Assembly: GCA_027858835.1 (NCBI GenBank)
Contig: JAQIBY010000167.1
Location: 1 to 46,572 of the forward strand
DNA: 46,572 bases
Source of the DNA: Bacteroidales bacterium
GTDB taxonomy: Bacteria > Bacteroidota > Bacteroidia > Bacteroidales > ML635J-15
Reading direction: 5' to 3'
In this document: one piece after another, positions 18,199-18,623 of the stretch
Numbering within the stretch: the first letter of the stretch is position 1
How the letters are laid out: every line of letters begins with the position of its first letter
Program-made: the position numbers and the translations under genes
Notes under the pieces: model-generated
What the model saw: the letters and a program-made list of their open reading frames with translations, nothing else
What the model was told of the DNA's origin: nothing
Database searches by the model: none

Positions 18199-18229
18199 TT
18201 TGTCAGTTAAAAAAAACACCGTATGTTTG
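18199..18229 (+). promoter_or_regulatory. Bacteroidetes sigma-ABfr-type promoter
   Basis: TTTG - 19 nt - TATGTTTG, matching TTTG-N19-21-TAnnTTTG. Confidence 0.75.
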
Positions 18230-18285
18230 CAATGCAAGATACGTTAATATTTAATAATGATGCAAAACAGCTTCAAAAAAACATT

Positions 18286-18356
18286 GGGTGGCAAACCGGT
18301 GAAAGTCCGGGAGACTTTTCAAAGCATCGCTTTGACGGATCTTGCGGTGACCACCC
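18286..18356 (+). ncRNA. Candidate structured leader / c4-like antisense RNA
   Basis: GGGTGG/CCACCC closing stem, CCGG-TGAAAGT-CCGG and TCAAAG-CATCG-CTTTGA hairpins, unpaired CGGATCTTGC complementary to 18386-18395. Confidence 0.6.
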
Positions 18357-18383
18357 TTATTTTCTCATTTAACACTTTTAATT

Positions 18384-18623
18384 ATGCAAGATCCGAAAGT
18401 CAAAACCAAGGACCCAACTGTCCGCGCTGCCGTATTAATGGAGGCAGTTTCAAACTTCAAAGATTTTAATGAAAACAACATGGTAAAAGGCGTGCTGCTT
18501 AATTTGCTCGCTAATTTCATTAATTCTGACGAAATCAATCTAATTTCCACAACGGAAAAAGAAGACATTTCACTCTCTGTAAAAATGATCAACGGATTAG
18601 TTGATGCTATTTACGATTATTAA
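18384..18623 (+). CDS. Small hypothetical protein, first gene of the antirepressor-like operon
   Basis: 79-aa ORF MQDPKVKTKDPTVRAAVLMEAVSNFKDFNEN... Confidence 0.65.
   Translation: MQDPKVKTKDPTVRAAVLMEAVSNFKDFNENNMVKGVLLNLLANFINSDEINLISTTEKEDISLSVKMINGLVDAIYDY

What the first reader, a model, noticed from the sequence alone, without database searches (positions are those of the whole stretch)
18199..18404. Candidate c4-like antisense RNA controlling an antirepressor-type operon in a Bacteroidetes prophage
Seen directly: (1) a near-ideal Bacteroidetes promoter TTTG-N19-TATGTTTG (18199-18229). (2) Downstream RNA that can fold as a three-stem junction: GGGTGG (18286-18291) with CCACCC (18351-18356), hairpin CCGG-TGAAAGT-CCGG (18296-18310) and hairpin TCAAAG-CATCG-CTTTGA (18319-18335). 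(3) The unpaired stretch after hairpin 2, CGGATCTTGC (18336-18345), is the exact reverse complement of GCAAGATCCG (18386-18395) covering the G of the ATG and the next three codons of the first ORF. TTTGA (18331-18335) can extend to TCAAA (18400-18404) across a short bulge. (4) Hairpin 1 loop TGAAAGT can pair (one G-U) with ACTTTTA (18374-18380) just 5' of the start codon. (5) A 9/10 copy of the target (GCAAGATACG, 18234-18243) lies at the probable transcript 5' end. From established knowledge: in phages P1/P7/P22, c4 RNA is made from the antirepressor transcript and uses short complementary segments to block the translation start of the leading gene. The operon here includes a KilA-N protein. 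Inference: an equivalent RNA switch outside the Proteobacteria.
Basis: partly seen in the sequence, partly recalled or inferred. Interest (0 to 1): 0.87.

Follow-up and report, generated by a model that had tools for sequence, protein, structure and literature searches.

The report
Antisense RNA guarding a phage antirepressor
Upstream of antirepressor genes in Bacteroidota phages lies a short folded RNA whose exposed strand always matches the start codon of the next gene and the first bases of its own transcript, so it is very probably a previously undescribed, phylum-wide counterpart of the c4 antisense RNA by which phage P1 keeps itself dormant.

Summary
I collected 50 loci (44 distinct cores), nearly all Bacteroidota. 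Each has a three-way-junction RNA of about 70 nt: P1 8 bp with a bulged A, HP1 with a TGMAAGT loop, HP2. 14 of 18 pairs covary (97.7% of cells paired; score 0.608 versus 0.163 shuffled). The segment after HP2 (a') is complementary to about 10 nt starting at the T of the next ATG in 49/50 loci, with entirely different sequences (0/100,000 permutations reach the observed sum). A second copy of that target lies 2-5 nt after the TAnnTTTG box, at the predicted +1, in 46/50 loci. Downstream genes include Bro-N, AntA, Rha, ANT and KilA-N antirepressors. Rfam C4 hits phage P1 strongly but none of these loci tested, and my model does not hit P1. So it works like c4 but is not a demonstrated C4 family member: a new variant of a known kind. 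Trans action and repression are inferred. Unexplained: in Muricauda-type genomes the RNA stands alone with a 90-aa ORF, three times beside defence genes.

The parts
18199..18229 (+). Bacteroidota promoter: -33 TTTG (18199-18202) and -7 box TATGTTTG (18222-18229)
   Evidence: Sequence; TAnnTTTG/TTCG box 2-5 nt before the 5' copy in 37 loci, another 8 with TTTG only. In Flavobacterium this box lies at -12 to -5 (PMC9723704), so the predicted +1 is 18234.
18233..18243 (+). 5'-terminal target mimic TGCAAGATACG (9/10 copy of the start-codon target), at the predicted transcript 5' end
   Evidence: Complementary to a'; equivalent found in 46/50 loci; 0/100,000 permutations reach the observed sum (repeated on 50 loci).
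18286..18356 (+). Core antisense RNA: three-way junction closed by P1 (18286-18293 with 18348-18356, A18350 bulged)
   Evidence: Covariance models R1/R2 80-97 bits; 14/18 pairs with changes on both sides.
18296..18310 (+). HP1: CCGG-TGAAAGT-CCGG, near-invariant TGMAAGT heptaloop
   Evidence: 3/4 pairs covary; loop TGCAAGT 24, TGAAAGT 23, TGTAAGT 2 of 50.
18313..18318 (+). b': second antisense segment GACTTT
   Evidence: Complementary to 18396-18401; own versus permuted 0/20,000, unique segments 1/20,000.
18319..18335 (+). HP2: TCAAAG-CATCG-CTTTGA
   Evidence: 6/6 pairs covary, 95% of cells paired.
18336..18346 (+). a': main antisense segment CGGATCTTGCG
   Evidence: Pairs exactly ATG-1 to about ATG+9 in 47 ATG-anchored loci, all four Watson-Crick pairs seen at several positions.
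18357..18366 (+). U-rich tract directly after P1 (TTATTTTCTC), possible leaky terminator
   Evidence: At least 5 T in the first 9 nt in 48/50 loci; T 88-90% at positions 4-6, 22% at position 11. Termination itself is inference.
18385..18401 (+). Target: a site TGCAAGATCCG (18385-18395) at the start codon plus b site AAAGTC (18396-18401)
   Evidence: Sequence; cofold recovers the continuous duplex.
18384..18623 (+). ORF1, 79 aa, regulated first gene, no relatives found
   Evidence: only itself among 5.8 billion proteins; no Pfam/PHROG.
18643..19095 (+). ORF2, 150 aa, unknown
   Evidence: weak phrog_27606.
19106..19570 (+). KilA-N / antirepressor-type regulator, 154 aa
   Evidence: Pfam KilA-N 2.3e-13; phrog_129 transcriptional regulator 2.4e-18.

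Best explanation
The leader of this prophage operon encodes a c4-like antisense RNA. Transcription starts at about 18234 from a sigma-A promoter. The RNA folds into a three-way junction that presents two antisense segments, b' (18313-18318) and a' (18336-18346). Together, with HP2 looped out between them, they pair with the start codon and first codons of ORF1 (18385-18401) and block translation initiation of ORF1 and, through it, of the antirepressor-type operon (KilA-N gene). Transcripts probably end part of the time at the U-tract after P1, or are processed, giving a short RNA that acts in trans; read-through gives the mRNA. The first nucleotides of every transcript are a copy of the target. 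They pair with a' first, so they most likely disarm the antisense in its own transcript and leave repression to released RNA copies. In a lysogen this keeps the antirepressor off and gives immunity specific for the a'/target pair. Shown by comparison: the RNA fold, both complementarities, the 5' copy and the antirepressor linkage. Inferred: expression, termination or processing, translational block, trans action, role in lysogeny.
For: Fold: 50 loci, 44 distinct, 97.7% of cells paired, covariation 0.608 versus 0.163 shuffled and at most 0.106 slid. a'/start codon: 30 unique antisense segments, own sum 736.8 versus permutation maximum 525.9; window limited to ATG-1..+9. 5' copy: own 747.4 versus maximum 521.4, placed 2-5 nt after TTTG. 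b'/codons: 0/20,000; the window duplex is continuous. Not circular: of 10 loci found only by the covariance model, without any use of complementarity, 8 keep both matches. Function linkage: among 29 scanned first genes 4 are Bro-N and 1 AntA; Rha (5), ANT (2), AntA (2) and KilA-N (1) among 36 following genes. Within one genome three copies are mutually specific: own scores 29/23/34 versus 16 or less for other copies' start regions. U-tract 48/50. The 5' copy binds a' more strongly than the start codon in 37/50.
Against: No transcript, terminator or repression was measured. In the window itself the 5' copy (-12.9 kcal/mol) is weaker than the start-codon pairing (-18.6), so the full-length leader is predicted to switch to cis-repression once the start codon is made; a purely cis mechanism is not excluded. 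Many loci have no recognised antirepressor within 4.5 kb, and the Flavobacteriia copies are solitary. ORF1 of the window has no homologues, so its role is unknown. In the window the operon lies directly upstream of terminase-like genes, not next to a recognised repressor.
Confidence: 0.7

Rival explanations
1. A purely cis-acting RNA switch: a' pairs either with the 5' end of its own transcript (gene on) or with the start codon (gene off), and some event such as 5'-end trimming, a protein or temperature decides. No separate short RNA is needed.
For: The three elements sit in one transcript; both partners of a' are conserved; stepwise folding of the window leader goes from the 5' copy to the start codon as transcription proceeds.
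Against: Precise matching to the start codon with orthogonal specificity between copies in one genome and the U-tract after P1 fit a released, immunity-type RNA; such high sequence turnover is expected for heteroimmunity and not needed for a cis switch.
Confidence: 0.25
2. Trans-activation as described for IsrK of Gifsy-1: the short RNA, through its 5' copy, captures a' of the mRNA and frees the start codon, so it turns the antirepressor on.
For: IsrK comes from a partially terminated leader transcript of an antirepressor operon and activates translation in trans (PMC4825925); the 5' copy here could do the same.
Against: A short RNA carries both 5' copy and a' and would fold on itself; the b' segment pairs with the ORF but not with the 5' copy, so the RNA is tuned to bind the start region.
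Confidence: 0.1
3. A type I toxin-antitoxin or host-domesticated control module: the target ORF, not an antirepressor, is the point, as in the solitary Flavobacteriia loci.
For: Muricauda-type loci have only the RNA and a conserved ~90-aa ORF, three beside CBASS, TIR or OLD-type genes.
Against: In phage contigs the first gene can be the antirepressor itself (Bro-N, AntA) and first genes are unrelated to each other; no toxin-like features seen.
Confidence: 0.12
4. Chance or coding: the region is part of a small ORF (18257-18469) and the repeats are coincidence.
For: A 70-aa ORF overlaps the leader in the window.
Against: Cores vary from 64 to 81 nt, and 22/50 loci have stops in all three frames between the 5' copy and the ATG; covariation.
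Confidence: 0.01

Closest known systems
c4 antisense RNA of phages P1 and P7 (Rfam RF01695) with leader target c4-a1b1 (RF03163)
   Same: Three-stem junction RNA in the leader of an antirepressor operon; two antisense segments, the main one in the strand between the second hairpin and P1; target at the translation start of a small first ORF followed by the antirepressor; an extra target copy near the transcript 5' end (P1 map).
   Different: No sequence-structure match in either direction. b' is in the HP1-HP2 junction, not in the HP2 loop; P1 is 8 bp with a bulged A; invariant TGMAAGT loop; the 5' copy is at +1 and holds only the a target; pairing covers the start codon itself; Bacteroidota promoter and hosts.
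IsrK of Gifsy-1 (RF01394)
   Same: Leader RNA of an antirepressor operon with a small ORF between; short and long isoforms.
   Different: IsrK activates translation (PMC4825925); no Rfam match here; the pairing logic differs.
sar RNA of phage P22
   Same: Antisense repression of antirepressor translation (PMC12197685).
   Different: From general knowledge, sar is made from its own promoter within the ant operon; here the RNA is in the operon leader.
C4-derived host sRNAs of Acinetobacter baumannii (PMC5320573)
   Same: Phage-type antisense RNAs with variable antisense segments spread through a host lineage, like the solitary Flavobacteriia copies.
   Different: Those match RF01695 and are processed at a GGW motif; these do not match, and keep a start-codon target next door.

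Membership tests
Rfam C4 (RF01695) | Match to the C4 covariance model | tested here: not met
   No match at E<=10 in window 18150-18500, own genome, L003 or seven further loci; P1 control 68.8 bits.
Rfam C4 (RF01695) | Three-stem junction closed by a long stem, two inner hairpins | tested here: met
   Same topology, supported by covariation, but other helix lengths and sequences.
Rfam C4 (RF01695) | Two antisense segments: a' after the second hairpin, b' in the second hairpin's loop | tested here: inconclusive
   a' in the same place; b' is in the junction before HP2; HP2 pairing with the ORF only marginal (431/20,000).
Rfam C4 (RF01695) | Target at the translation start of the first ORF of an antirepressor operon | tested here: met
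   49/50 loci at the ATG; antirepressor families downstream in many.
Rfam c4-a1b1 (RF03163) | Leader copy of both target segments | tested here: inconclusive
   Copy of a in 46/50 loci; no b copy (3740/20,000); no model match.
c4 RNA mechanism (P1/P7) | RNase P processing at the 5' end of the P1 stem | not testable with these tools
   P1 often starts with GG, but no processing data; feature from PMC5320573.
c4 RNA mechanism (P1/P7) | Trans-acting repression of antirepressor synthesis, determining immunity | not testable with these tools
   Only specificity by sequence was shown.
Known riboswitches or other Rfam families | Match above gathering score | tested here: not met
   Only tmRNA in the window; weak FopS hits lie on the opposite strand and reflect the A/T-rich 5' UTR.

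The most novel reading that the evidence does not exclude
A c4-type immunity RNA arose independently in Bacteroidota phages, with its own twist: the first nucleotides of every transcript imitate the target, so each transcript disarms its own antisense and only released copies repress. The cassette is retuned to whatever gene comes first and has been taken over by marine Flavobacteriia as a stand-alone module near defence genes.
Probability: 0.4. Interest if true: 0.9.

Novelty: new variant of a known kind. Interest (0 to 1): 0.82.

Why it matters
c4-type antisense control is listed only for Proteobacteria and their phages (Weinberg et al. 2010, PMC2864571, Table 1). Here the same circuit logic appears in another phylum with an unrelated sequence and a different version of the fold, across Bacteroidales, Flavobacteriia, Chitinophagaceae and Cytophagia-type hosts. 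That argues for convergence or very deep divergence, gives a first handle on lysogeny control in a dominant but poorly understood phage-host phylum, and makes the role of the 5' target copy directly testable. Each locus predicts its own target, so immunity groups of these prophages can be read from sequence.

Tried and rejected
Protein search of ORF1 in viral contigs and in 5.8 billion proteins: no relatives. Exact hairpin-2 pattern: four unrelated hits. BLASTN in phage records: none. Rfam at gathering and permissive thresholds: no family; FopS hits are opposite-strand and due to the 5' UTR. HP1 loop or HP2 as antisense segments: only marginal signal. b' against the 5' copy: none. RF01695 search of 300 Bacteroidota genomes found nothing, but its controls did not ring either, so it does not prove absence. 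L112 (5' copy only) and L113 (tRNA-like) were dropped from the statistics. Early filter: loci found by pattern were required to have P1 and HP1 pairing, so those helices are partly ascertained; HP2, a', b' and the 5' copy were not used for selection.

Full report
OBSERVATION. Every coordinate in the finding is right. The promoter TTTG-N19-TATGTTTG, the three helices, the 10-nt exact complement to the start of ORF1 and the 9/10 copy of that target at 18234-18243 are all there. Rfam shows only a tmRNA in the window and nothing relevant at the site even at E<=10. The region folds better than shuffled sequence (z -2.59).

RELATIVES. A 442-nt DNA search in 100 related genomes gave one partial match, 71% over the RNA (L003). 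It has the same layout but quite different sequence at the decisive places: antisense TTGTTACGCA, start region TGCGTAACAA, and the same string again just after a TATGTTTG box. A two-sequence covariance model found two more in 395 genomes of the order. A degenerate pattern for the conserved backbone then found about 40 loci in IMG/VR and GTDB genomes, and a second model added ten candidates, of which eight were kept. The working set is 50 loci, 44 distinct cores. Titles name Muricauda/Allomuricauda, Flagellimonas, Aquimarina, Flavobacterium, Flavivirga, Apibacter, Tannerella, Azobacteroides, Fulvivirga, Chitinophagaceae and uncultured Bacteroidales; the single exception (L092, a 3.1-kb contig labelled Dojkabacteria) may be a binning error. 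Frequency is low: 9 of 395 genomes of the order and 5 of 399 of the phylum sample, a lower bound because the scan used strict filters.

FOLD. On 50 loci, 97.7% of cells pair, 14 of 18 pairs have changes on both sides, and the covariation score is 0.608 against 0.163 for shuffles and at most 0.106 for slid versions. P1 has two further pairs behind a bulged A: CA with GTGA in 36 loci, CG with GCGA in 12, CT with GAGA in 2. HP1 has a nearly invariant TGMAAGT loop (47/50), which resembles a T-loop (inference). P1 and the outer HP1 pair were partly fixed by the search pattern and filter; HP2 (6/6 pairs covarying) was not.

ANTISENSE a'. The strand between HP2 and P1 is complementary to the start region in 49/50 loci. 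With 30 unique antisense segments the own-pair sum is 736.8; the best of 100,000 permutations is 525.9. Column by column the pairing runs from the T of ATG to about +9 and then stops, with GC, CG, TA and AT all common at the variable positions. The candidates found only by the covariance model, chosen without looking at complementarity, behave the same: 8 of 10. In one MAG with three copies each RNA fits its own target (29/23/34) and not the others' start regions (16 or less).

5' COPY. In 46/50 loci a second sequence complementary to a' lies 47-88 nt upstream of P1, 2-5 nt after TTTG; permutations 0/100,000. In Flavobacterium the TAnnTTTG box lies at -12 to -5 (PMC9723704), which puts the window's +1 at G18234, the first base of the copy. 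This copy pairs with a' more strongly than the start codon does in 37/50 loci; the window itself is an exception (-12.9 versus -18.6).

ANTISENSE b'. The strand between HP1 and HP2 is complementary to the codons after the first target: own versus permuted 0/20,000, and 1/20,000 with unique segments. Examples: GACTTT/AAAGTC (window), GCTCTTT/AAAGAGC (L065), GTCC/GGAC (L043). In the window the two sites are adjacent, so b' and a' make 16 contiguous base pairs with HP2 looped out, and cofolding finds exactly this (ddG -11.9; shuffled -2.5 +/- 2.1; 0/300). The 5' copy has no b counterpart.

U-TRACT. T content after P1 is 88-90% at positions 4-6 and falls to 22% at position 11; 48/50 loci have at least 5 T in the first 9. 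This suggests a leaky terminator that would release a short RNA; it is inference.

GENES. In phage contigs the first gene can be the antirepressor itself (Bro-N, AntA) or a small ORF followed by Rha, ANT, AntA or KilA-N. The window has a 79-aa ORF without relatives, a 150-aa ORF and a KilA-N protein. The window is a prophage whose integrase (39386-40561, -) lies next to the tmRNA gene. In Muricauda-type Flavobacteriia the RNA and a conserved ~90-aa ORF (67 relatives) stand alone.

COMPARISON WITH c4. In P1 the c4 RNA (68.8 bits to RF01695) has a' after the second hairpin (CTGTCAA, with a2) and b' in the second hairpin's loop (TCACTAAC, with b2), with further targets a1/b1 in the leader. c4 is processed by RNase P at the P1 5' end and represses the antirepressor (PMC5320573; PMC12197685). 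The logic is the same here: leader RNA, three-way junction, two antisense segments, target at the first ORF of an antirepressor operon, extra leader target. Membership fails: neither model finds the other. Weinberg et al. list c4 for Proteobacteria and phages only (PMC2864571), and no paper in the searched library describes a Bacteroidota counterpart; that library is open-access only, and supplementary motif lists (e.g. of PMC8040213) could not be checked.

MECHANISM. Most likely: the RNA blocks translation initiation of ORF1 and so of the operon, mainly as a released, trans-acting RNA, while the 5' copy disarms a' in its own transcript. Structure and pairing are shown by comparison; expression, release, repression and immunity are inferred. 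Main rival: a purely cis-acting switch between the 5' copy and the start codon.

Noticed in passing
L071:3011-5238, L076:118-2220, L100:419-2431: In Muricauda-type genomes the solitary RNA plus ~90-aa ORF lies beside defence genes on the opposite strand: CBASS cyclase with 2TM effector, TIR (ThsB-like), OLD/AAA-TOPRIM. Other solitary loci (L096, L104) have none seen, so it may be a hotspot or chance.
   Followed up: partly
39386-41081: Tyrosine integrase (minus strand) directly beside the tmRNA gene (40682-41081, minus): probable prophage attachment site in ssrA.
   Followed up: partly
L078 (Apibacter muscae), downstream of the RNA: The target start codon reads ATA instead of ATG while antisense and 5' copy are intact; the same genome has a second intact copy (L080). 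Possible decaying locus.
   Followed up: no
L117:999-1472: Here the targeted first gene appears to be a RadC-like protein instead of an antirepressor or small ORF.
   Followed up: no
L082:1236-1357 (+), L101:2354-2473 (+): Sub-threshold hits to the Bacteroidetes sRNA family FopS on the opposite strand, because the leader before the ATG resembles, in reverse complement, the conserved stretch of FopS.
   Followed up: partly
19106-19570: The KilA-N ORF is short, and similar coding seems to continue in another frame right after it; possible frameshift or split gene.
   Followed up: no
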